Positions 3,652 to 32,156 of a DNA stretch of 64,000 nucleotides are shown here, one piece after another. Source of the DNA: Acidovorax defluvii (GTDB taxonomy: Bacteria; Pseudomonadota; Gammaproteobacteria; Burkholderiales; Burkholderiaceae_C); NCBI GenBank assembly GCA_003268905.1, contig QLTU01000018.1, positions 1-64,000 on the forward strand, written 5' to 3'. The notes below the pieces were generated by a model. That model did no database searches and had not been told where the DNA came from. It worked only from the letters and a program-made list of their open reading frames with translations. Positions within the stretch are counted from its first letter, which is position 1; every line of letters begins with the position of its first letter. The position numbers and the translations under genes were made by a program.

Positions 3652-4500
3652 ATGAGCATCACCACAGTTGGCATCATCGGCGCGGGCACCATGGGCAATG
3701 GCATTGCGCAGGCATGCGCGGTCAAGGGCATCAAGGTCGTCATGGTCGACATCTCTGAGGCCGCCGTGCAAAAAGGCCTGGCCACCGTCTCGGGCAGCCT
3801 CGACCGCCTGAAAAAAAAAGAAAAGATCACCCAGGCCGACAAGGACGCAGCCCTGGCGTGCATCCAGACCTCCACCAGCTACGACGACCTGAAGGCCGCC
3901 CAGCTCGTCATCGAGGCCGCCACCGAGAACTACGAACTCAAGCTCAAGATCCTCAAGCAGGTCGACGGCATCGTCGGCCCCGACGTGATCATCGCGTCGA
4001 ACACCTCGTCGATCTCCATCACCAAGCTGGCCGCCGCCACCAGCCGCGCCGACAAGTTCATCGGCATGCACTTCTTCAACCCCGTGCCCATGATGGCGCT
4101 GGTCGAGATCATCCGTGGCCTGCAAACCAGCGACGCCACGCACGACGCCGTCAAGGCCATGGCCGTGGCGCTGGGCAAGAGCCCCATCACCGTGAAGAAC
4201 GCCCCGGGCTTCGTGGTCAACCGCATCCTGGTGCCCATGATCAACGAGGCCTTCTTTGTGCTGGCCGAAGGCCTGGCCACACCCGAAGACATCGACGCCG
4301 GCATGAAGCTGGGCTGCAACCAGCCGATTGGCCCGCTGGCCCTGGCCGACATGGTGGGCCTGGACGTGTGCCTGGCCGTGATGGACGTGTACTTGCAGGA
4401 GTTTGGCGACAGCAAATACCGCGCCTGCCCCCTGCTGCGCGAAATGGTGGCCGCCGGTCGCCTGGGCCGCAAGACGGGCCGTGGCGTTTACAGCTACTGA
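3652..4500 (+). CDS. 3-hydroxybutyryl-CoA / 3-hydroxyacyl-CoA dehydrogenase
   Basis: The product (282 residues) oxidises (S)-3-hydroxyacyl-CoA with NAD, in butyrate or fatty-acid beta-oxidation or in phenylacetate catabolism. The Rossmann fold opens with VGIIGAGTMGNGIAQACA. The catalytic region has SNTSSISIT and MHFFNPVPMMALVEII, whose His is the expected catalytic base; the C-terminal domain has PGFVVNRILVPMINEA and DMVGLDVCLAVMDV. The length is that of the stand-alone bacterial Hbd/PaaH type. Start at the ATG opening MSITTVGIIG; the extra upstream frame from 3580 lacks conservation. The gene stands alone and ends in a good terminator. Exact substrate cannot be told from sequence. Confidence 0.92.
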   Translation: MSITTVGIIGAGTMGNGIAQACAVKGIKVVMVDISEAAVQKGLATVSGSLDRLKKKEKITQADKDAALACIQTSTSYDDLKAAQLVIEAATENYELKLKILKQVDGIVGPDVIIASNTSSISITKLAAATSRADKFIGMHFFNPVPMMALVEIIRGLQTSDATHDAVKAMAVALGKSPITVKNAPGFVVNRILVPMINEAFFVLAEGLATPEDIDAGMKLGCNQPIGPLALADMVGLDVCLAVMDVYLQEFGDSKYRACPLLREMVAAGRLGRKTGRGVYSY

Positions 4501-4565: not shown

Positions 4566-4612
4566 GCCGCCCGATGTTCTGAAGTCCGTTCTTCAATAGG
4601 GGCTTTTCTTGG

Positions 4613-4632
4613 TTAAATTGCACACAATTTAA
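4613..4632. promoter_or_regulatory. Probable OhrR operator
   Basis: A perfect inverted repeat, TTAAATTG-CACA-CAATTTAA, lies 21 bases before the ohrR ATG. AT-rich palindromes built on AATT are typical of OhrR/MarR-family operators. Its position over the ohrR promoter region suggests that OhrR represses its own gene and, by read-through, ohr. Confidence 0.7.
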
Positions 4633-4653
4633 TTGACAGCAATAATTCAACCC

Positions 4654-5115
4654 ATGCCACGCAAGCTCTCGCCCCTCTCACCCAGCCCCGCCACCCTGCA
4701 ACTGGACAACCAGGTGTGCTTTGCGCTGTATTCCGCCTCGCTGGCCATGACCAAGCTGTACAAGCCGCTGCTGGACGCCATTGGCCTGACCTATCCGCAA
4801 TACCTGGTGATGCTGGTGCTGTGGGAGGGCGACGGCGTCACGGTAAGCGCACTGGGCGAGCGCCTGTATCTGGATTCGGGCACGCTCACCCCGCTGCTCA
4901 AACGGCTCGAAGCCTCGGGCCTGATTGCCCGCCTGCGCGATGCCGAAGACGAGCGGCGCGTGCGCATCAGCCTGACCCCCGCAGGGCGGTTGCTGCGCGA
5001 TGCCGCCGAAAGCATTCCGCCCTGTGTGCTGCAACGCAGCCAGTGCTCGCTGCCCGAGCTGGCAGCACTTACCGGCCAGCTCAAGACACTGCGCGCACGC
5101 CTGAGCGCGCCTTGA
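4654..5115 (+). CDS. ohrR: Organic hydroperoxide sensor-repressor, MarR family
   Basis: OhrR represses ohr until a cysteine is oxidised by organic hydroperoxide. With the ATG at 4654 the protein has 153 residues and the sensing Cys falls at position 22 ([13 protein letters not shown]), the same number as in Xanthomonas OhrR. Tyr36 and Tyr47, which contact that cysteine in the family, are also present. Two more cysteines (124 and 131) near the C-terminus fit the two-cysteine class, which forms an intersubunit disulfide. The winged-helix region contains [20 protein letters not shown] and the wing [17 protein letters not shown] at 4633 is also in frame but would overlap the operator, so I prefer 4654. 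Confidence 0.93.
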
Positions 5116-5182
5116 TCCCATCCACCCCTTTCTGTTCCCACCCCGTCCCGCGCTGCGGGCATTACCCTCAAAGGAAAATTCC

Positions 5183-5599
5183 ATGGCCTCGCTCGAAAAA
5201 GTTCTGTACACCGCCAACGCCCACACCACCGGAGGCCGCGACGGCACCTCGCGCACCGATGACGGCCGCCTGGACATCAAGCTGTCGTCTCCCGGCACGG
5301 CTGGCACCGGCACCAACCCCGAGCAGCTGTTTGCCGCTGGCTATTCGGCCTGCTTCATCGGCGCCATGAAGGCCGTGGCTGGTATGCAAAAAATCACCCT
5401 GCCACAGGACCTGGCCGTTGACGCCAGCGTGGCCCTGGGCAAGGTGGGTGCAGGTTATGGCATCGCCGTGCGCCTGGCCATCAGCCTGCCCGGCATGGAC
5501 CGCAGCGCCGCCCAAGCCCTTGTTGATGCGGCCCACCAGGTGTGCCCCTACTCCAACGCCACGCGCGGCAACATCGACGTGGCGCTGACACTGGTCTGA
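5183..5599 (+). CDS. ohr: Organic hydroperoxide resistance peroxidase
   Basis: Ohr is a thiol peroxidase that reduces fatty-acid and other organic hydroperoxides with lipoyl-dependent recycling. The 138-residue product has the two catalytic cysteines at 57 ([15 protein letters not shown]) and 121 ([14 protein letters not shown]), and the Arg (19) and Glu (47) that shape the active site in the family. A strong AAAGGA ribosome site precedes the ATG. It sits 67 bases downstream of its regulator, ohrR, on the same strand, so both are probably transcribed together and induced by hydroperoxide stress. Confidence 0.95.
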
Positions 5600-5784
5600 A
5601 CCACCGGGGCCGCACCAGCGCGCCGCGTGCGCCGCTGCGGCCCCGTCGCTTGCCAATGGCATCCGGCCTTGCCGCCAGATTTGCCACTCTGCGCGACAAA
5701 ATCGCGCACATCTCTCAGGCGCATGGGTACGTGCAAGCCAGGTCTCAGCCAGACGGGGCATGATGGCGTCTCAAGGAGACATCC

Positions 5785-6552
5785 ATGAAGCTGGCCCTGC
5801 TGTCAGATATTCATTCCAACCGCCAGGCCCTTGACGCGTGCATGAGCCACGCCCGAGCGCAAGGCGCTGAGCGCTTTGCCTGGCTGGGCGATCTGGTGGG
5901 CTATGGCGCCGACCCCGGCTACGTGGTACGGCAGGCCATGGCGCTGGTGGCAGCCGGCCACTGCGTGATTGGTGGCAACCATGACGCCCTGGCCGTGCAC
6001 CCTCCAAAACCCGGTGACCGGGCGGCCAGTACCGTGGCGGCATACGGGGCCCAGTGGACGCACGAACAGCTCACGCCGCAAGAGCGCGCCTTTCTTGCTG
6101 CCCGCCCCCTGGTCGCCGAGATCGGCGGCGTGCTGCTGGCACATGCCAGCGCAGACACCCCCGAGCGCTGGCCTTATTTGGACAACGAAACCGCAGCAGC
6201 GCAATGCCTGGACGCCGCAACCCGGCGCCCCGGCATCTGCCATGTGTTTTGCGGCCATGTGCACCAGCAAACGCTGTACCAGCGCGGCACCTGGCGCGGG
6301 CTCGTGTGCTTTACACCCCAGCCGGGCATGGCCCTTCCGGTGCCGCCACCGCAGCAGTGGGTAGCGACCATCGGCTCGGTAGGCCAGCCGCGCGACGGCG
6401 ACCCGCGTGCCATGTATGCCCTGCTCGACACCGATGTCTGGTTGCTGCGCTTTGAGCGCGTGCCCTACGACCACGGCGCTGCTGCCGCCGCCATTCGCGC
6501 CACAGGCGCCATGCCCGATTACTTTGCCCAACGCCTGCCGCTTGGCCGGTGA
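5785..6552 (+). CDS. Metallophosphoesterase, calcineurin-like
   Basis: A 255-residue cytoplasmic protein with the five metallophosphoesterase blocks in order: LLSDIHSNRQAL (residues 4-15), WLGDLVGYGADPG, IGGNHDALAV, LLAHASAD and CGHVHQQTLY. These supply the Asp, His and Asn ligands of the dinuclear metal site. The family includes phosphodiesterases, protein phosphatases and nucleotidases; the substrate cannot be assigned. A CAAGGAGA ribosome site precedes the ATG. The next thing downstream is a 5' remnant of srkA, so an ancestral phosphoesterase-srkA pairing is possible. Confidence 0.88.
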   Translation: MKLALLSDIHSNRQALDACMSHARAQGAERFAWLGDLVGYGADPGYVVRQAMALVAAGHCVIGGNHDALAVHPPKPGDRAASTVAAYGAQWTHEQLTPQERAFLAARPLVAEIGGVLLAHASADTPERWPYLDNETAAAQCLDAATRRPGICHVFCGHVHQQTLYQRGTWRGLVCFTPQPGMALPVPPPQQWVATIGSVGQPRDGDPRAMYALLDTDVWLLRFERVPYDHGAAAAAIRATGAMPDYFAQRLPLGR

Positions 6553-6718
6553 AGCGTGCCAGCCCCTGCCAGGGCATCGCGCATTCGCCAAGCCCCAAGG
6601 CGTGTGGGGGCGCGGCACGGCCCACAGCCCCCGCATGCAATACGCCGTGACGACACCCGACCGGGGGTATCCGCTGGCCATGCGCCTCCCGCGCTGAACG
6701 GCGGGCTACGATGGCCCG

Positions 6719-6835
6719 ATGAACATTTCCCCAGAAGCGCCTGGCCTGCACCCTTTTTCCACCCTCACACCCGACATGGTGCTGGATGCACTGGCCAGCG
6801 TGCGGCCATCAGAGGCTGCGGCCCTCTCGAACTAG
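6719..6835 (+). pseudogene. 5' stub of srkA (truncated duplicate)
   Basis: The frame from the ATG at 6719 begins MNISPEAPGLHPFSTLTPDM and then VLDALASV, after which it degenerates and stops at 6833-6835. The intact gene at 9522 begins MHHTPDATPLHPFATLTPDV and VLDALASV. Nucleotide identity over the shared stretch ending at 6802 is very high, and about 15 bases before the ATG are also similar. This is the first 28 or so codons of a serine/threonine kinase gene, cut exactly where the chemoreceptor-SOUL block begins. Confidence 0.8.
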
Positions 6836-8421
6836 CTTCGGGTCAGCAGCGCGGGCGATGGTGCGTAAGAAGACTGGTGCGCCGCCCCGGCCAGCTTGAA
6901 GCGCCCCACCAGCCGTTCGAGCACGGCGGCCTGCTCGCTCATGGCACCGGCAGCCGCTGCACTTTCTTCCACCAGCGCCGCGTTCTGCTGGGTCATTTGC
7001 TCCAGCTCGTCCACGGTGGAATTCACCTGCTGCATGTGACTGCTTTGTTCGGCGGAGCTGGCAGAAATCTCCTCGATGATGCCGCTGACGCGCTGCACCG
7101 ACTGCACGATCTCCTGCATGGTCTGCCCGGCGCGGTCCACCAGCGCCGTGCCGGCTTCCACGTTCTCCACCGAGGCGGAGATCAGCGCCTTGACCTCGCG
7201 TGCGGCCTCGGCCGAGCGCCCGGCCAGCGAGCGCACCTCGCTGGCCACCACCGCAAAGCCGCGCCCCTGCTCTCCGGCACGGGCGGCTTCCACGGCCGCG
7301 TTCAGCGCCAGGATGTTGGTCTGAAAGGCAATGCCGTCGATCACGGCAATGATGTCCACAATCTTCTTGGAAGAGTGGTCGATGCGGTGCATGGTCTGCA
7401 CCACCTCGCTCACCGACTGACCGCCGCTTTGCGCCACGGTGTAGGCCGAGGCCGCCAGCGCGTTGGCCTCACGCGCCGAAGTAGCCGACTGGCCCACCAC
7501 GCCGCTGAGGTGGTCCAGTGTGGACGATGCGCGCTGCAGGTTGGCGGCAGTGGCCTCGGTGCGGTTGGACAGATCATGGTTTCCATGGGCGATTTCGACA
7601 CTGGCGGCGCCAATGCTGCCCGCCGAGCGCTGCACCTGCCCCACCAGTTCGGCCAGCGAATTCGACATCTGCGCCAGCGCGCGCAGCACTTCGCCCATCT
7701 CGTCCTGGCGATCGGTGACGATGCGCACCGTCAGGTCGCCCTCGCCAATCGAGCGCGTCACCTGCACGATGTCGGCCAGGGGCTCGGTCACGCTGCGCTG
7801 CACCAGCCGCGTGCCGATGCACACCGCTGCAATGATGATGGCCATGATGCCCGCCACGCCCCACACGGTTTTCAGGCGCTCGTTGACGGCCTTGTCGCGC
7901 AGTTCGGTGGCGCCGCGTTCGGTCAGGCGCACCATGCCCTGCTGCGCGGTCTGCAAGGCTTTGAGCTTGCCCTGGGTGTCGCCCTGGATGTGCGCCTGCA
8001 ACGCGGCTGCGTCGCCCGCAGCCTTGAGCTTTTGCGCAGCATCCAGCGATGCCTTCAGTGCCTGCGCCTGGCTGGTGGCGGCTTCCAGCGCTGCGCGCTC
8101 CATGGTGTCGGTGAGCAGCGCGCTCAGTGACGATTGCACCTGGGTGAGTTCTTGCAGGGCCTGCTCCTGCCCGCCCTGCAACAGGGCCGCCGAAGCCTCA
8201 TCGGACGCCAGTGCCGCCCCCAGGGTGCGCAACGCCTGTGCCTCGACCAGCCCGCGCCAGCGCGACGCCAGCTCCAGCTTGCTTTGCTGGTCGGACTGCT
8301 CCTTGACCGTGATGGCCTGCGACTTCACCGTGCGCACGGCAGAGCCGGTGGACATGAGCACCAGACCGATGCTCAGTGCAATGGCAGGCAGCCATATCTT
8401 GGTTTTGATGCTCAACGCCAT
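6832..8421 (-). CDS. Methyl-accepting chemotaxis protein
   Basis: A 529-residue chemoreceptor. An N-terminal membrane helix (about residues 8-30) is followed by a periplasmic helical sensor of about 150 residues rich in Ala, Gln and Leu, then a second membrane helix (about 188-208). Next come a HAMP domain ([20 protein letters not shown]) and the cytoplasmic signalling domain with its hairpin tip [20 protein letters not shown] and [15 protein letters not shown]. The C-terminus lacks a CheR-binding NWETF-type pentapeptide. The ligand is unknown. No chemotaxis genes are nearby. It is convergent with the srkA stub, overlapping its last bases. Confidence 0.93.
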
Positions 8422-8619
8422 TCGTGCTTTCTACTGTTTCGTGCACGGAATCACATCCGCATGTAACAAAGTACGACATGGCCCAAACGGTGGGGAGCAT
8501 CTGGCCTATTCAGCCTGGAAACCTCCGCTGGATGTGCCCGACAGTGCCGTGATCGGCGTGCCAGGCAAGGTGTGACGACGCAGCGCTCTCCTGTGCGTCA
8601 GTCCACCGTTCGCAAGCGG

Positions 8620-9378
8620 TCAACTGGGGTTTCCAGGTTCTATCTCCAGCATGATCTCGTTGCGCCGAAACATGGGCAGGGTCCACGGCGGGTTGTAGCG
8701 GGCCAGCTGGGGGCTGCCACGGGTCTTGATCTGCTGCGCGGCCAGCCAGGCCACCAGTTCATCGGTGCGCTGCTGGACGATGGCTTCGGTGTTGAACCCC
8801 GAGTAGCTCAACACCGCCCAGGTCTTGGCCGGTACTTCACGCAAGGTCACCGCAGGGTTGTTGGGCCTGGGCAAGGTCGCCAGGGTGTATTGGGCGGGCA
8901 TCACAAAATGCACGCGCCAGCTTTGGGCGCCCTGCAGCGCGGGGAGCGCCTGGCCGGCCTGTGCGCTGGCAGGGGGCAGCGGCTGCAAAGCCACAGGCGC
9001 CGTCATCGCGATGGTCTGCGTTGACGGCGGCGGCGGGCTAACGGGCTCCAGCGCCACGGAGGCCGTCATCGCAATCTTTTCTGCGCCCTTGGCCGGGGCA
9101 GCCCCCGCCGCCACGTTGTTGCCAAAGATGTAGTCGGCGATGGCGCGAAAGCCCTTGTTCGAGGCCGCATCCATATCGCCCGCGACCGTGGTCTCGGCAA
9201 CGATGAACGGCGCATAGCGGCGCAGCTCGATGTGCCCGTGCGTGGACAGTTTTTCGTAAGCAGGTTCTTCAGTGGCCATGGCGGTTTGCCCCCACAGGCC
9301 CAGCGCCAGCGCCAAGGCGACGGCTGTCCTGCGGGGAGGGTTCTCAAGGGTTGAATGGAGAAACAGGTGCATGCGCAT
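8620..9378 (-). CDS. SOUL-family haem-binding protein, exported
   Basis: The product (252 residues) starts with a signal peptide ending near QTAMA, so it is probably periplasmic. The SOUL-domain features are YEKLSTHGHIELRRYAPFIV, SNKGFRAIADYIFGNN, the IAMTAPV signature, and the C-terminal YNPPWTLPMFRRNEIMLEI. The IAMTAPV segment occurs twice in tandem (EKIAMTASVALEPV and TQTIAMTAPVALQPL), which lengthens the loop compared with most relatives. Bacterial SOUL proteins bind haem, but their role is poorly known. I chose the ATG at 9378 because it gives a complete signal peptide. It lies between the chemoreceptor and intact srkA. Confidence 0.88.
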   Translation of the reverse strand: MRMHLFLHSTLENPPRRTAVALALALGLWGQTAMATEEPAYEKLSTHGHIELRRYAPFIVAETTVAGDMDAASNKGFRAIADYIFGNNVAAGAAPAKGAEKIAMTASVALEPVSPPPPSTQTIAMTAPVALQPLPPASAQAGQALPALQGAQSWRVHFVMPAQYTLATLPRPNNPAVTLREVPAKTWAVLSYSGFNTEAIVQQRTDELVAWLAAQQIKTRGSPQLARYNPPWTLPMFRRNEIMLEIEPGNPS

Positions 9379-9521
9379 TGAGCTTTCGTCGCGTGGCAGC
9401 GACCAGACACGGAAGGTCCAGCAGACTGCCAGGGCCGTTGGGGTATTTAGGAATTCCATCACAGAACGAATGGCATGGTGCGCCCGAGGGCAACGCGCAG
9501 CCAGCCAGCGACAATGCCCAG

Positions 9522-10562
9522 ATGCACCACACCCCCGACGCCACGCCACTCCACCCCTTTGCCACACTCACACCCGACGTGGTGCTGGATGCACTGGCCA
9601 GCGTGGGCCTGTATGGCGACGGGCGACTGATGGCGCTGTCATCCTACGAAAACCGCGTCTACCAGGTCACGCTGGAAGACGGCGTGCGCGTGGTCGCCAA
9701 GTTCTACCGGCCAGGCCGCTGGAGCGAGGCCCAGATTCTCGAAGAGCACGCCTTTGCCGCCGAGCTCATGGCCGCCGAGGTTCCGGCCGTTGGCCCGCTG
9801 GTGCTGGCAGGCCGCACGCTGCACCCATTTGGTGGCTTCCAGTTCTCGGTCAGCCCCTGGCGCGGCGGCCGGCAGCCCGAGCTGGACGACTTCGAGGTGC
9901 TCGAATGGATAGGCCGCTTTCTGGCGCGCATCCACACCGTCGGCGCGGCGCGCCCGTTCACGCACCGCCCCGCGCTCGATTGGCAAAGCTTTGGCGCAGA
10001 GCCACGCGACTGGCTGCTGCAGCACGAACTGATCCCGCTCGACGTGCAATCGGCTTGGCGCGATGCCTGCAAGACCGCTCTTGATTTGATAGCTTCCAGC
10101 GCTTTACAGGAAAGCGCTGGAGGCCAATTTCTCTTGAAAGATGCCACCCTGCTGCGCCTGCATGGCGACTGCCACCCCGGCAACATCCTGTGGACGCCAC
10201 TGGACGAATGGGGGCGCGGCGGCCCGCACTTTGTGGACCTGGACGACGCCCGCATGGGCCCGGCCGTGCAGGACCTGTGGATGCTGCTGTCGGGCGACCG
10301 GCGCCAGCGCACCCACCAGCTCGGCGCCCTGATCGACGGTTACGAACAATTCCGCACGTTCGACCGGCGCGAGCTGGCCCTCATCGAGCCGCTGCGCACC
10401 CTTCGCCTGATCCACTACAGCGCCTGGCTGGCCCGCCGCTGGCAAGACCCGATCTTCCCCATCAACTTCCCCTGGTTTGGCAGCAGCGACTACTGGCGTG
10501 GCCAGGTGGATATGCTGCAAGAGCAGATCGAAGCGATGCAGGAAGCGCCGCTGGTGGCCTGA
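9522..10562 (+). CDS. srkA: Stress response serine/threonine protein kinase (YihE/SrkA family)
   Basis: SrkA is an aminoglycoside-phosphotransferase-fold kinase linked to protection from stress-induced death. The 346-residue protein has the expected ALSSYENRVYQVTLEDG start of the N lobe, the catalytic loop LHGDCHPGNILWT (near residue 213) and the metal-binding VDLDDARMGPAVQDLW, followed by a helical tail ending in NFPWFGSSDYWR. Residues about 189-207 are encoded by a palindromic repeat (copy 3) inserted in frame just ahead of the catalytic loop. A duplicate of its first 28 codons sits at 6719. A strong terminator follows about 165 bases downstream. Confidence 0.92.
   Translation: MHHTPDATPLHPFATLTPDVVLDALASVGLYGDGRLMALSSYENRVYQVTLEDGVRVVAKFYRPGRWSEAQILEEHAFAAELMAAEVPAVGPLVLAGRTLHPFGGFQFSVSPWRGGRQPELDDFEVLEWIGRFLARIHTVGAARPFTHRPALDWQSFGAEPRDWLLQHELIPLDVQSAWRDACKTALDLIASSALQESAGGQFLLKDATLLRLHGDCHPGNILWTPLDEWGRGGPHFVDLDDARMGPAVQDLWMLLSGDRRQRTHQLGALIDGYEQFRTFDRRELALIEPLRTLRLIHYSAWLARRWQDPIFPINFPWFGSSDYWRGQVDMLQEQIEAMQEAPLVA
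10089..10140 (+). repeat. Palindromic repeat, copy 3, inside srkA
   Basis: ATAGCTTCCAGCGCTTTACA then GGAAAGCGCTGGAGGCCAAT; the arms CCAGCGCTTT and AAAGCGCTGG pair. It is read in frame as LIASSALQESAGGQFLLK. The copy keeps the palindrome (arm changes are compensatory) but has lost the stop codons present in intergenic copies. Confidence 0.85.
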
Positions 10563-10725
10563 TGCGGACGCGTTCATGCGCCCAGGCGATGCAGCCAAAG
10601 AATGTGACGCAGTAAAGGCCTTGGTGCCAGGCCGTCACGTCGCCCATTGCCGCCAATGCAGTCGCACTGCCGTTCCATCCTGTGCCCCACCCACCCGCAG
10701 GTGCACACCTTGAGGGACGCACCAT

Positions 10726-10768
10726 GAAAAACCCCCGGTGAGGCTTGGCTTCACCGGGGGTTTTTACT
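10726..10768 (+). terminator. Strong rho-independent terminator, probably bidirectional
   Basis: AAAAACCCCCGGTGA pairs perfectly with TCACCGGGGGTTTTT across a 10-base loop. The A-run on one side and the T-run on the other let it serve srkA on the plus strand and htpG on the minus strand. Confidence 0.85.
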
Positions 10769-10777
10769 ATGATTTCA

Positions 10778-10828
10778 ATAGCTGCTAGCGCTTATCCATA
10801 AAGGACTAGAGCCGTTTTTTAATCAAAT
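10778..10828 (+). repeat. Palindromic repeat, copy 4
   Basis: ATAGCTGCTAGCGCTTATCC then ATAAAGGACTAGAGCCGTTT and a TTTAATCAAATCA tail. It ends on the htpG stop codon (10828-10830), so the element lies flush against the 3' end of that gene, next to the terminator. Confidence 0.85.
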
Positions 10829-12916: not shown

Positions 12917-13906
12917 TCAATAGCTGAGGGTGACCGTGATGGTGTCGGTGTAGGTTCCAGGTGCCCCCACCGCCTGCACGGGAACCCGGCCATACACGGT
13001 TAACACGGTGGGATTGGTTTGTGTGCTACCAGATCCGTTGACGGTATTGGTGCCGCCTGCAGTGTCATTGCCCCAGCGCTGGGTCCGGCTAGGGTCGCGG
13101 TACAACTCGTAGGCAAGATAGTCGGGCGCTGGGCCCGCCATGCGGCGTTGCCCGGCCACCACTGCATGGAGGCCATCGTTCAGGCCCAGCCTCCAACTGA
13201 GGTTGCCTGGGCATTGCAGGCTGATGGTGGTGGTGGAATCGATGGTGCTACCCAGCGTGCTGGTGCTGCCGAAATCCAAATCGGCAGGTGCACTCATGGA
13301 GATTTGACAGGCGTTGCTCACCTGCGAAGTGGCCATGGCACCGCTCTGGGTAAACGACCCATTGTTAGGGCCGGCCTGGCAGTTGGGAGGATAGCCCCCC
13401 GTACGCCAGGAAAACTGCACCGTGGCCGCCAAGCCCGAATTCTCGTACCCACTCTCAGATACTGGTGTACCCGGGGCCGGCGCATAAGCGCGCGCATAAA
13501 TCGGCTGGGTCCGGGGCAGACTGCTGTTGGCTGGCACCTCGAACTGCCAGTTGAAGTCGCGCCCTGCCGTCGGCAGCTTCTGGGTCCGCGCCGGGTCGGA
13601 AAACAGGTCGTAAAAAGTGTAGTACTGGTTGCCACTACGCCAACCCAGCATACGCCGCCCCGCAGCCGTGGCCGTGGGTGTGCCCTGGGCAGATATCACC
13701 AGACACATCCGCACATAGATGGTGCTGCTGCCACCCCAACAGCCATAGGCGAAGCTGCTGGTGATGTCGGTGGGGCCGCTGTTTTGCAGGGTGCCGAAGT
13801 TAAAAGGCCCAAAACCATTGTTCGAGCAGCCTTGTGCCGCCGCTGGTGCCGACACACAAGCGGCAAGCGCCATCACCCATGCGCCCAGAATATGCTTGAA
13901 ATTCAT
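12917..13906 (-). CDS. Csu-type fimbrial tip protein, two SCPU domains
   Basis: The product (329 residues) has a signal peptide ending SAPAAAQ, then two spore-coat-U-like (SCPU) pilin domains: one starting at [18 protein letters not shown] and a second around [20 protein letters not shown]. The C-terminal [13 protein letters not shown] is the donor-strand-like end seen in SCPU pilins. Two-domain SCPU proteins encoded last in archaic chaperone-usher (Csu) operons act as the tip adhesin (CsuE role). The ATG overlaps the stop of a 50-codon ORF by ATGA. Secreted through the usher at 14052-16457. Confidence 0.88.
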
Positions 13907-14055
13907 ACTTTCTTCTCTCCCAGATCGACCGTCTCGAAGCCCAGATTGGTCATACTTGCCGTGCAGTTCACAGCGGGATGGGCATCATGTACCTGCAAGG
14001 CATCCAGCCAGAAGATGTCCACCAAAGACAACAGCAACGTTTTGGATGAATTCAT
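13903..14055 (-). CDS. Small coupled ORF in the fimbrial operon, possible minor-pilin remnant
   Basis: Fifty codons between usher and tip genes. Its ATG overlaps the usher stop (ATGA at 14052-14055), and its TGA overlaps the ATG of the tip gene (13903-13906), so translation could be coupled across all three. The product starts MNSSKTLLLSLVDIFWLDAL and later reads NCTASMTNLGFETVDLGEKK. The second part resembles the first strand of an SCPU pilin (Cys, then Phe and Val-Asp). A frame shift within the hydrophobic start would give a better signal peptide, so this may be a decayed minor pilin kept for coupling. It could also be a genuine small protein. Confidence 0.45.
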   Translation of the reverse strand: MNSSKTLLLSLVDIFWLDALQVHDAHPAVNCTASMTNLGFETVDLGEKKV

Positions 14056-16457
14056 CGTAAAACCTCCGGGGTGCAGCGCAGGGGCCCGATCTCCGGGATG
14101 CCCTCACCATTTTTGGCATGTTCAAAACGTGCGTGGCACACCCCGGCCGGGGTCTCCACACGCAGAACATTGTGCAGGTCCAGCGTATCGAGGTACACCA
14201 CCCCGTCAAACCCGACCAGCGCGGGCTCACCGGCTTGCCCGTTCACCCGCACCAGGCTGCCCAGCGGCACCGGCTGGCCGGCGGCATCGACCATCACGAC
14301 AGACGCCGCACGGATCGGGGTGATGCCAAACTTCACCAGTGACCCGGCGCGGTCGCTGGGGGTGACCACCGTGTTGACACGGTCAATGCGCACATCGGCG
14401 GGCAGCTGCATCGGGTCAATCGCCACCTGGTTATTTTGGTAGGCATTGATGGGCACCACCAGCAGCATGCCATTGCGGTCGGTAGTGCCGATCAGGCGGT
14501 TTTCCAGCCGCACCGGCACACCGGCCACACCGTCGGCGGACACCACGGCAAACGCGTCGTCGATGCGCCGCGACGCAAACGGCTGCCCACCCATCACCAC
14601 CAGCCCGCCGGTGGCATTGGCATAGGCAAAACGGCTGTCGCCAAACACATTCACCCCCGTGGCCACACGGCCATAACGGCCCAGGAAGTTGACTTCGGCC
14701 TGCCCACCTTTTTCACCGTCACCGAAGCGGGTGCCTGCGCGCCAGCCCACACCGCCCTCGCTCGGCATGGAGCTTTGCACGTCGGCAGTGAACGTGGTGC
14801 GCTGGTTATCGCGCTGCATGCCGGTGCCCACATGGGTGCGCCCGTCAAGCGCCCAGCTGAAACCCACAAACAGGTTGCGCTCGCTGCGTTTGTCCAGGTT
14901 CTGGTTGAAGCTGACGTTAAACGAGGCGGCACGGCCCAGGGACTTGAACCAGTAGGCGCTGGCCAGACGTGTGGCTTCTTCACCCGCAGGCCGCAAATAC
15001 AGATAGCTCAGGCCAAAGTTGCCTGCGTTCTGCGTGCCATAACCCACAAAGGCACGGCCGGTGCCGATGGCCGGCGCACTGCCGTAACGCGACGCCACGT
15101 CACGGTAGTCGCCATGGGTGCGGGTACTGTCCGCACCCAAGTTAAAACTTCCCCTTTGCCAGCTGTAGCCCAGGTTGAGCTGCGAACCGCTGCCGTCGCG
15201 GTGGTTGCTGTGGGCCAACGCACCAGACACCAGCCCCAGGGGGCCGAGCTGCCAGGCACCACCGACACCGGCTTTGGCCAGCCCTTTGGTGGTTTCACCC
15301 TGGGTTTCGAAAGTGAAATTGTTCGTCACGCCGTAACGCCACACCGCAGTGGCGGCGGGATCGTTGCCGTAGTCGAAGGAGCGCAGGCCGTAACTCTGCC
15401 GCACCACACCCAGGTCCACCGACCAGTCACTCAAGCCCGGAGCCAGCAGTTGGCGGGTGTCGAACAGCGAAAAATTGAGCGTGGTGGCGCGGCCAAATGC
15501 GTCGGTCACCACCACCTGCGCGTTGCCCGTGCTGTTGATGTTGGGCAGGGTGTTGATCTGGAACGGCCCAGCGGGCACCTGCCCGCTGTACTGGCGCATG
15601 CCGTTCACAAACAACTCCACATCCGACGGCATGGTGGCCGAGCCCATAAAGGCGGGCACCGGCGCGGTCACACGGTAGGGCTGCAGTGCAAAGTTGCGCG
15701 CCAGCTGGATGCCTCCGATGCGGGTGGCACGCGACCAGGGCAGTGCGCCCGTGAGGGTGTCGCCCACGCGCAGGGTCACCATGTCGTCCTGGAAGGACCG
15801 GCTCCAGGTGGTGTCCAGCCGGGCCGACTGCCCTTGCCAGCCCGCACCGCCGCTGCGCGCTGTCTGCGTGAGTGCGGTGCTGCTCAGCACCGAAGTGCCG
15901 CTGAAGGCGCGCACTTCGGTAAAGGCATTCAGGCTTGACGTATTGCCGCTGCCTTGCGTGCCATACAGGTCGTAGTTGAGCAGCACACCAGGGGAGGCGC
16001 TGGCCTGGGGAGATTTGGCGTTGGGCATACCCACCTGCGTGGTGGGCAGCGACAGCATGGACAAAGGGGCGTTGAGGGCCACTGTCTGGCGTGACGGATT
16101 GAACTGCACCGACACCCCGGGCAAGCTGCCCAGGCGCACGGGGTCGGAGCTGCCTGCCGGCAGCACAAAACCCAGCTGGCGCAGTGCAGACGCACTGGCC
16201 CACAACTCACCGTCGCGCAGGCCAAACTGCACCAGGCCGCGCGGCATGCCGTTCAGGGTCAGATCCAGGTACACATCGGAGCCGCGCGGCCCGGCAAGGC
16301 GGGTGTCACCGGCGTCGGCGATCAACACAGGGGCCATAGCGGCGGCCAGCGTCACAGTGCCAGCAGCATGTGCCGCAGACACCAGCAAACCAGGCAGCAG
16401 CAGTCCCTCAGCGAGGCGAATCGACCGTCGGGATAATTTGCTGCGCTGTCGTGCCAT
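14052..16457 (-). CDS. Outer-membrane usher of Csu-type fimbriae
   Basis: A fimbrial usher of 801 residues (CsuD/FimD role) that forms the outer-membrane pore through which chaperone-bound pilins are assembled. Signal peptide to about residue 32, then an N-terminal domain (DVYLDLTLNGMPRGLVQFGL), the 24-stranded barrel and plug with TRIGGIQLARNFALQPYRV and DVELFVNGMRQYSGQVPAGP. The C-terminal domains contain GMLLVVPINAYQNNQVAIDP and end with C-containing CHARFEHAKNG. The ATG lies inside the chaperone gene (50-base overlap), and the stop overlaps the next ATG, showing tight coupling. Confidence 0.93.
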   Translation of the reverse strand: MARQRSKLSRRSIRLAEGLLLPGLLVSAAHAAGTVTLAAAMAPVLIADAGDTRLAGPRGSDVYLDLTLNGMPRGLVQFGLRDGELWASASALRQLGFVLPAGSSDPVRLGSLPGVSVQFNPSRQTVALNAPLSMLSLPTTQVGMPNAKSPQASASPGVLLNYDLYGTQGSGNTSSLNAFTEVRAFSGTSVLSSTALTQTARSGGAGWQGQSARLDTTWSRSFQDDMVTLRVGDTLTGALPWSRATRIGGIQLARNFALQPYRVTAPVPAFMGSATMPSDVELFVNGMRQYSGQVPAGPFQINTLPNINSTGNAQVVVTDAFGRATTLNFSLFDTRQLLAPGLSDWSVDLGVVRQSYGLRSFDYGNDPAATAVWRYGVTNNFTFETQGETTKGLAKAGVGGAWQLGPLGLVSGALAHSNHRDGSGSQLNLGYSWQRGSFNLGADSTRTHGDYRDVASRYGSAPAIGTGRAFVGYGTQNAGNFGLSYLYLRPAGEEATRLASAYWFKSLGRAASFNVSFNQNLDKRSERNLFVGFSWALDGRTHVGTGMQRDNQRTTFTADVQSSMPSEGGVGWRAGTRFGDGEKGGQAEVNFLGRYGRVATGVNVFGDSRFAYANATGGLVVMGGQPFASRRIDDAFAVVSADGVAGVPVRLENRLIGTTDRNGMLLVVPINAYQNNQVAIDPMQLPADVRIDRVNTVVTPSDRAGSLVKFGITPIRAASVVMVDAAGQPVPLGSLVRVNGQAGEPALVGFDGVVYLDTLDLHNVLRVETPAGVCHARFEHAKNGEGIPEIGPLRCTPEVLR

Positions 16458-31985: not shown

Positions 31986-32003
31986 TTCGGTTCATCCCCC
32001 TGA

Positions 32004-32061
32004 GGCGCTTTCGCGCCTTCCCCCTTCTCTCGAATCGCTGCGCGATTCGGGAAGGGGGACG
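32004..32061 (+). repeat. Hairpin repeat after the binding-protein gene
   Basis: AGGCGC-TTT-CGCGCCT and then CCCCCTTC...GAAGGGGG enclosing CGAATCG-CTG-CGCGATTCG (32020-32060). A long stable stem lies 20-75 bases after the stop codon; such a structure can protect the abundant binding-protein mRNA and lower read-through into livF. Confidence 0.65.
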
Positions 32062-32156
32062 CCACCGGCGCGGCGGGGCGGCCCTTGCGCGGTGGCCCTG
32101 GCCTGAGCCGCGCCAGATCAACGGCTGACTACGAAGCGGTTGCCCTCGGGCAGCCG

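What the first reader, a model, noticed from the sequence alone, without database searches (positions are those of the whole stretch)
6700..9606. Duplicated srkA start flanking a chemoreceptor-SOUL block
The first 28 codons of srkA and some leader sequence occur twice, at 6719 and 9522, as direct repeats about 2.8 kb apart. The truncated copy ends at 6802, and the block between contains an MCP and a SOUL gene on the opposite strand. The copies differ at the very N-terminus, so the event is not recent. This looks like an insertion by homologous exchange with a relative carrying a different srkA neighbourhood.
Basis: partly seen in the sequence, partly recalled or inferred. Interest (0 to 1): 0.6.

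Follow-up and report, generated by a model that had tools for sequence, protein, structure and literature searches.

The report
Recombination scar with a chimeric srkA
A bacterium appears to have taken up a relative's chemoreceptor and heme-protein genes by recombining inside one kinase gene, which left a hybrid full-length copy of the kinase gene and a short broken stub of the old one; it is a clear fossil of an ordinary process.

Summary
The repeat is real: 6705-6802 and 9508-9605 match at 76 of 98 positions; the next best place on that strand has 47. Six of 47 mapped genomes, among them G065 and G032, sisters of this genome in an rpoB+gyrB tree of nine, carry phosphoesterase-[Ser/Thr kinase with Usp domain]-srkA without chemoreceptor or SOUL gene; three carry the chemoreceptor divergently beside srkA. 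The stub's first 41 nt differ from the resident type by 2 and from the full copy by 16; the last 43 nt differ between the copies by 2, from each of 124 relative rows by at least 5. The full srkA is not resident-like at its 5' end but is from about 9630 on. The resident kinase-Usp gene is now a decayed remnant. No donor holding the whole block was found. The kind of event is known.

The parts
5183..5599 (+). OsmC-like gene, resident left flank
   Evidence: Pfam OsmC E 1.1e-17; over 4750-5499, 85-94% DNA identity to G065/G032/G061/G019 against 67-80% to G071/G007/G062/G072
5785..6552 (+). metallophosphoesterase gene, resident
   Evidence: Pfam Metallophos_2 E 2.1e-14; 84-85% protein identity in G065, G032, G061, G019, G012 and (partial) G027
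6553..6706 (+). decayed start of the resident Ser/Thr kinase-Usp gene, fused to the srkA leader by an internal deletion; short shared run GGCGGG at the junction (about 6700-6706)
   Evidence: alignments to the G065 kinase start and to the G065 srkA leader; the genome search finds, as orthologue, only a remnant at 6599-6772 with one TGA
6719..6802 (+). srkA stub: first 28 codons, 5' part of the resident type
   Evidence: first 41 nt: 2 differences to G065 and to G012, 16 to the full copy
6705..6802 (+). left copy of the direct repeat
6803..6831 (.). 29 nt between the stub and the MCP stop codon; joint at 6802/6803 read as non-homologous
   Evidence: no clear similarity by eye to the DNA downstream of the MCP in G071 or G007
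6832..8421 (-). methyl-accepting chemotaxis protein gene, acquired
   Evidence: MCPsignal E 5.1e-53 and HAMP; orthologue next to srkA at 90% protein identity in G071, G007, G062
8422..8482 (-). MCP leader shared with G071
   Evidence: the G071 alignment runs to 8482; 27 nt at 96%
8620..9378 (-). SOUL heme-binding family gene, start taken at ATG 9378
   Evidence: Pfam SOUL E 1.1e-42; in 1 of 47 genus genomes, its own; best relatives 73-75% in other genera
9508..9605 (+). right copy of the direct repeat
9522..10562 (+). intact srkA read as chimeric: non-resident 5' end, resident-like remainder
   Evidence: NCBIfam NF008738 (PRK11768) equivalog, 500.6 bits over a cut-off of 194; informative sites; tree of 9630 onward
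9549..9628 (+). interval inferred to hold the homologous crossover
   Evidence: strict sites: 9539-9547 five donor-type in a row, 9560 resident, 9569 donor, then 9629 and all four later ones resident

Best explanation
The ancestor carried MarR-OsmC-phosphoesterase-kinase/Usp-srkA. DNA from a relative in which an MCP gene (with SOUL inserted beside it) lies divergently upstream of srkA entered the cell. It recombined homologously within the first codons of srkA, and its other end, just past the MCP stop codon, was joined without homology after codon 28 of the resident gene. The result is srkA codons 1-28 as a stub, about 2.8 kb of cargo, and a full srkA with donor 5' end and resident 3' part. 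The topology that fits best is a single crossover of a circularised fragment of about 2803 bp holding MCP-SOUL-srkA codons 1-28: it explains the abrupt right edge of the repeat, the mirrored mosaic of the two copies and the near-identical tract they share. Shown: two allele types of the srkA start, two neighbourhoods in relatives, the repeat, the mosaic. Inferred: the route of entry, the circle, the order of events, the donor, and that SOUL came in the same step. Consequence (inferred): srkA now sits behind a donor leader instead of behind the phosphoesterase-kinase pair, whose kinase gene is lost. The confidence covers the exchange with one homologous and one non-homologous junction, whichever the topology; between circle and linear end I lean about 60 to 40.
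For: Resident neighbourhood in 6 of 47 genomes and MCP-srkA in 3 of 47. G000 groups with G065 and G032, 100/100, in an rpoB+gyrB tree of nine genomes; both have the resident arrangement. Stub 5' end resident-like, full 5' end not. Strict informative sites: before 9600, 6 donor, 3 resident, 1 neither; after, 5 of 5 resident. srkA from 9630 on is sister to G065 (99/98) in a tree of 47 rows. Of 12 genomes compared in 250-nt windows, only G071, G007 and G062 align over 7000-8499, at 84-94%. The copies share 41 of 43 nt at 6760-6802/9563-9605, while each of 124 relative rows (a few genomes occur twice) differs from either copy by 5 or more. Natural transformation is reported in the earthworm symbiont Verminephrobacter (PMC4212676, listing and start of abstract; that it is of the same family is recalled).
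Against: Over the first 41 nt the full copy is closest not to the MCP-srkA genomes (9 differences to G007, G062 and G071) but to G072 (7), which has no MCP hit beside srkA. With looser site criteria the part after 9600 is less clean: 10 resident, 7 donor, 2 neither, four of the donor sites at 10096-10134, around a palindromic repeat. In the 3' tree G071 is the next neighbour of G000+G065 (98/92), so a donor-derived 3' part is not fully excluded. No genome with MCP-SOUL-srkA was found, so the donor is unseen. The 43-nt tract could be later conversion or chance. The repeat is short for a crossover.
Confidence: 0.8

Rival explanations
1. Sub-case of the above (its probability lies inside the 0.8): homology-facilitated illegitimate recombination of a linear fragment, with the homologous crossover in srkA beyond codon 28 and the illegitimate end joined at codon 28. 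Same kind of donor and product, different topology.
For: This is the described kind of event (PMC3240628, passages; proposed for Vibrio effector loci in PMC5361080, passages). A crossover at 9606-9628 would satisfy the strict site list.
Against: PMC3240628 says that a deletion of a size similar to the insertion is generally observed; by the strict site list at most about 24 nt of srkA were lost here against a gain of about 2.8 kb. It leaves the 2-of-43 similarity of the copies, against 5 or more to each of 124 relative rows, to chance or later conversion.
Confidence: 0.33
2. The direction is reversed: the MCP-srkA side is native and MarR-OsmC-phosphoesterase-stub is the incoming segment.
For: Window 3664-4500 is 91.5% identical to G071, whose arrangement is MCP-srkA, while 4601-5600 is only 76.3% identical to it.
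Against: 3750-4499 is equally close to G065 (88-96%). G000 groups with G065 and G032, both of resident arrangement, and G071 is the most distant genome compared in rpoB (85.1%) and gyrB (84.9%).
Confidence: 0.06
3. The stub is an internal tandem duplication of the own srkA start, with MCP and SOUL inserted later by other means.
For: The last 43 nt of the copies are nearly identical.
Against: The first 41 nt differ at 16 positions while the stub differs at 2 from G065 and from G012; the MCP has a ready source in relatives with MCP-srkA.
Confidence: 0.05
4. A mobile element with site-specific integration that restores the 5' end of its target gene.
For: An element that replaces the end of its target would leave a stub and a restored gene (general knowledge; no call).
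Against: The named gene families between the copies are MCP and SOUL only; no integrase or transposase was recognised there (the smaller overlapping ORFs were not searched). The repeat is 78% overall, unlike an attachment site. No plasmid record holds 80% of the block in one place.
Confidence: 0.03
5. Assembly or binning chimera.
For: The genome is in 83 contigs and the arrangement was found in no second assembly.
Against: Both flanks are resident-like; 98-nt copies 78% alike would not normally confuse an assembler (inference).
Confidence: 0.03

Closest known systems
Homology-facilitated illegitimate recombination (Streptococcus pneumoniae, Acinetobacter baylyi, Pseudomonas stutzeri; PMC3240628, passages)
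   Same: one homologous junction in a shared gene, one non-homologous junction, net gain of foreign genes
   Different: by the strict sites hardly any resident DNA lost, and a stub of the anchor gene kept as a direct repeat; the usual 3-10 bp microhomology cannot be tested without the donor
Single-crossover (Campbell-type) integration of circularised linear DNA (one of the two fates of linear DNA named for E. coli in PMC3240628, passages)
   Same: direct repeats at both edges of the insert, each a resident/donor hybrid
   Different: the homology would be only about 98 nt, and the circle is inferred
Displaced immunity-gene arrays at Vibrio type VI loci (PMC5361080, passages)
   Same: incoming block anchored in a conserved stretch, old genes left beside it; the authors suggest homology-facilitated illegitimate recombination
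   Different: what is left here is a broken stub of the anchor gene, not an intact gene; no toxin or immunity gene was recognised; one event

Membership tests
Lateral exchange with a relative having a different neighbourhood | relatives without the block at the same place | tested here: met
   6 of 47 genomes with phosphoesterase-kinase-srkA and no MCP/SOUL
Lateral exchange with a relative having a different neighbourhood | relatives with a block gene next to the same anchor gene | tested here: met
   MCP divergent from srkA in G007, G062, G071, 3 of 47; SOUL not with them (genome-wide for G007 and G062; around srkA only for G071)
Lateral exchange with a relative having a different neighbourhood | a sequenced donor with the whole block MCP-SOUL-srkA | tested here: not met
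   SOUL in 1 of 47 genus genomes, the own one; six SOUL neighbourhoods from other genera show no srkA or MCP hit; metagenome contigs were not open
Homology-facilitated illegitimate recombination | homologous junction at one end | tested here: met
   switch to resident-like srkA between 9547 and 9629 by the strict sites; looser criteria are less clean
Homology-facilitated illegitimate recombination | non-homologous junction at the other end, usually with 3-10 bp microhomology | tested here: inconclusive
   abrupt end of similarity at 6802; donor sequence beyond the MCP unknown
Homology-facilitated illegitimate recombination | deletion of resident DNA of similar size | tested here: not met
   by the strict sites at most about 24 nt of srkA lost; the kinase deletion of 1.3-1.4 kb lies on the other side of the stub
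Single-crossover integration of a circle | direct repeats bounding the insert, each hybrid, crossover inside the repeat | tested here: inconclusive
   repeat and mosaic seen; crossover placed at 9549-9628 while the repeat ends at 9605
Site-specific mobile element | integrase or transposase in the insert | tested here: not met
   the two Pfam-named ORFs are MCP and SOUL; other ORFs there overlap them and were not searched
SrkA (YihE)-type kinase | equivalog model above its cut-off | tested here: met
   NF008738 500.6 bits, cut-off 194; that this model is SrkA/YihE is recalled, its description reads serine/threonine protein kinase

The most novel reading that the evidence does not exclude
The srkA gene serves as a recurrent anchor at which small, perhaps circularised, fragments from relatives integrate by a single crossover in this genus, moving genes such as the MCP together with an end of srkA; the window (5' stub) and G028 (3' stub) would be two snapshots, and G007/G062 and G071 earlier, cleaned-up products.
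Probability: 0.12. Interest if true: 0.5.

Novelty: new member of a known kind. Interest (0 to 1): 0.28.

Why it matters
It is an unusually legible record of how one homologous and one non-homologous junction can add genes between species: both allele types, two neighbourhoods and a hybrid gene can be read. It also warns that a repeat whose copies differ at one end need not be old. For the organism it means that srkA has changed its upstream context and that the kinase-Usp gene once beside it is lost. It opens no long-standing question.

Tried and rejected
Reversed direction (left flank incoming), suggested by the 91.5% match of 3664-4500 to G071, was set aside after the rpoB/gyrB tree. A crossover at about 9750 was my first reading, from 250-nt windows; 80-nt windows and the site list moved it to 9549-9628, because G065 is out of line with the other resident genomes at 9682-9761. 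A plasmid source was not found (1766 records match, 0 hold 80% of the block in one place; the 15 listed rows lie over MCP parts only). Six SOUL neighbourhoods in other genera gave no link to srkA or MCP. A sigma-70 promoter scan of 6500-10800 found nothing near the srkA starts. Literature: no paper with Acidovorax, srkA and chemotaxis together; a search on truncated copies and chimeric genes gave three papers that, by title and start of abstract, are unrelated.

Errors and cut-offs of mine: the 3-hydroxyacyl dehydrogenase query was read in the wrong frame and is not used. The second tree mixed strands and is replaced. In one search weak hits were hidden before counting (MCP under 300 bits, MarR under 90, the dehydrogenase under 150, kinase under 80, everything more than 5 kb downstream). 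In one search, 2 of 126 loci were left out because they begin too close to the srkA start, 60 of 124 rows were printed, a few genomes occur twice, and the comparison is ungapped (G019 is one codon out of register). The 128 loci also include a few genomes twice. Of the stretches those from other contigs of G000 were not used.
Full report
Observation. The window holds two copies of the start of srkA in direct orientation, 6705-6802 and 9508-9605 (98 nt, 78%, spacing 2803). The match, 76 of 98, stands far above the next best place on the + strand of the 64 kb (47; mean 26, sd 4.7). The right copy begins an intact gene of 346 codons that scores 500.6 bits against NF008738 (cut-off 194). The left copy has 28 codons and stops being similar at 6802. 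Between lie an MCP gene (MCPsignal, HAMP) and a SOUL gene, both on the - strand.

Relatives. The window is contig C18 of a genome (G000) of 4.1 Mb in 83 contigs; the named records with the most similar srkA include Giesbergeria and Acidovorax assemblies. I mapped the srkA neighbourhood in 47 genomes: 45 of the same genus with a srkA match (G003 gave none), plus G071 and G072, reached through loci. Six (G065, G032, G061, G019, G012, G027) have phosphoesterase, then a 478-codon Ser/Thr kinase with a C-terminal Usp domain, then srkA 36-225 nt further on. Twenty-three have phosphoesterase and kinase with more than 1.2 kb between kinase and srkA. Three (G007, G062, G071) have the MCP divergent from srkA, 89-94 nt away; G007 and G062 are nearly identical in srkA, so these are two lineages. 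In the other 15 no phosphoesterase, kinase or MCP hit above my cut-offs was seen upstream, in some because the contig ends. None of the 47 has SOUL there. SOUL occurs in 1 of 47 genus genomes, the own one, and in 61 of 399 genomes drawn from the family at E 1e-15, the own one included, at 75% identity at best. Six of those other SOUL neighbourhoods gave no srkA or MCP hit.

Which side is resident. In an rpoB+gyrB tree of nine genomes G000 groups with G065 and G032 (100/100), both of the phosphoesterase-kinase-srkA type. Sliding identity over 12 genomes shows OsmC and phosphoesterase like that clade, and 7000-8499 alignable only to G071, G007 and G062. So the left flank and the stub are read as resident, and MCP-SOUL-srkA 5' end as the arrival. 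G071, a metagenome-assembled genome, deserves caution: its rpoB and gyrB are 84-87% identical to all others compared, while parts of its srkA contig (MCP, srkA, 3664-4500) are 88-92% identical to the window. The MCP-srkA arrangement does not rest on it, since G007 (single contig) and G062 share it.

Fine structure. Over the first 41 nt the stub differs from G065 and G012 by 2 and from the full copy by 16. The full copy there is nearest to G072 (7 differences), then to G007, G062 and G071 (9 each), against 14-21 to the six resident genomes; G072 has no MCP beside srkA, so this end does not name the donor. Over the last 43 nt the two copies differ by 2, whereas each of 124 relative rows differs from either copy by at least 5. 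At sites where the six resident genomes agree and the three MCP-srkA genomes agree on another base, the full copy has 6 donor, 3 resident and 1 other state before 9600, and 5 of 5 resident after. With looser criteria the later part gives 10 resident, 7 donor, 2 other, four of the donor sites at 10096-10134, around a palindromic repeat. A tree of srkA from 9630 on (47 rows) puts G000 beside G065 (99/98), with G071 next (98/92) and G007/G062 in another part. The full gene is therefore best read as a hybrid with its junction at 9549-9628.

The lost kinase. Window 6553-6706 aligns to the start of the kinase-Usp gene and then, through a short shared GGCGGG, to the srkA leader. A search of G000 finds no intact orthologue, only this remnant (46% identical over 57 residues, with a TGA); its other matches are 21-39% identical. 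This deletion, 1.3-1.4 kb by comparison with four relatives, is a second event; its order relative to the exchange is unknown.

Mechanism. One homologous crossover in the srkA start and one non-homologous joint after codon 28 explain the arrangement. If a linear end had been joined, one expects resident DNA to be lost (PMC3240628, passages); by the strict sites hardly any is. If a fragment of about 2803 bp ending at srkA codon 28 was circularised and integrated by a single crossover in the shared tract, the repeat, its abrupt edge, the mirrored mosaic and the near-identity of the tract all follow. I favour the circle at roughly 60 to 40 among these two. Both remain inferences.

Parallel. In 128 loci (1.8 Mb) searched for a second piece of their own srkA at E 1e-4, pieces that reach towards an end of the coding part occur in two: the window, and G028, where 243 nt near the 3' end recur at 96% identity 1.4 kb downstream, with an ORF between. 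The other hits are 25-73 nt long; the longest, in L094, match an internal stretch in both orientations and look like a dispersed repeat; L089 has repeats of the leader only. Two cases do not make a hot spot.

Verdict. It is an ordinary kind of event, recorded with unusual clarity.

Noticed in passing
L041 (G028), about 1.4 kb downstream of srkA: 243 nt near the end of srkA recur at 96% identity, with an ORF of 375 codons on the - strand between (its C-terminus resembles an IPTL-CTERM signal; name recalled): a mirror image of the window's 5' stub.
   Followed up: partly
window 31994-32117: A stretch of about 120 nt has copies elsewhere at about 85-93% identity in at least 10 of the 12 genomes searched; the list was cut.
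   Followed up: no
window 10092-10124 and about 1219-1268: A palindromic repeat (AGCGCT core) lies inside the srkA coding sequence; a piece similar to that part of srkA occurs at about 1219-1268, and relatives have comparable matches.
   Followed up: no
L068 / G071 contig C5: This metagenome-assembled genome has rpoB and gyrB 84-87% identical to all relatives compared, but parts of its srkA contig are 88-92% identical to the window: lateral transfer or mis-binning.
   Followed up: partly
window 12917-16457, - strand: Two ORFs (329 and 801 codons) that read like a spore-coat-U-type subunit and an usher of a chaperone-usher cluster; naming recalled, not tested.
   Followed up: no
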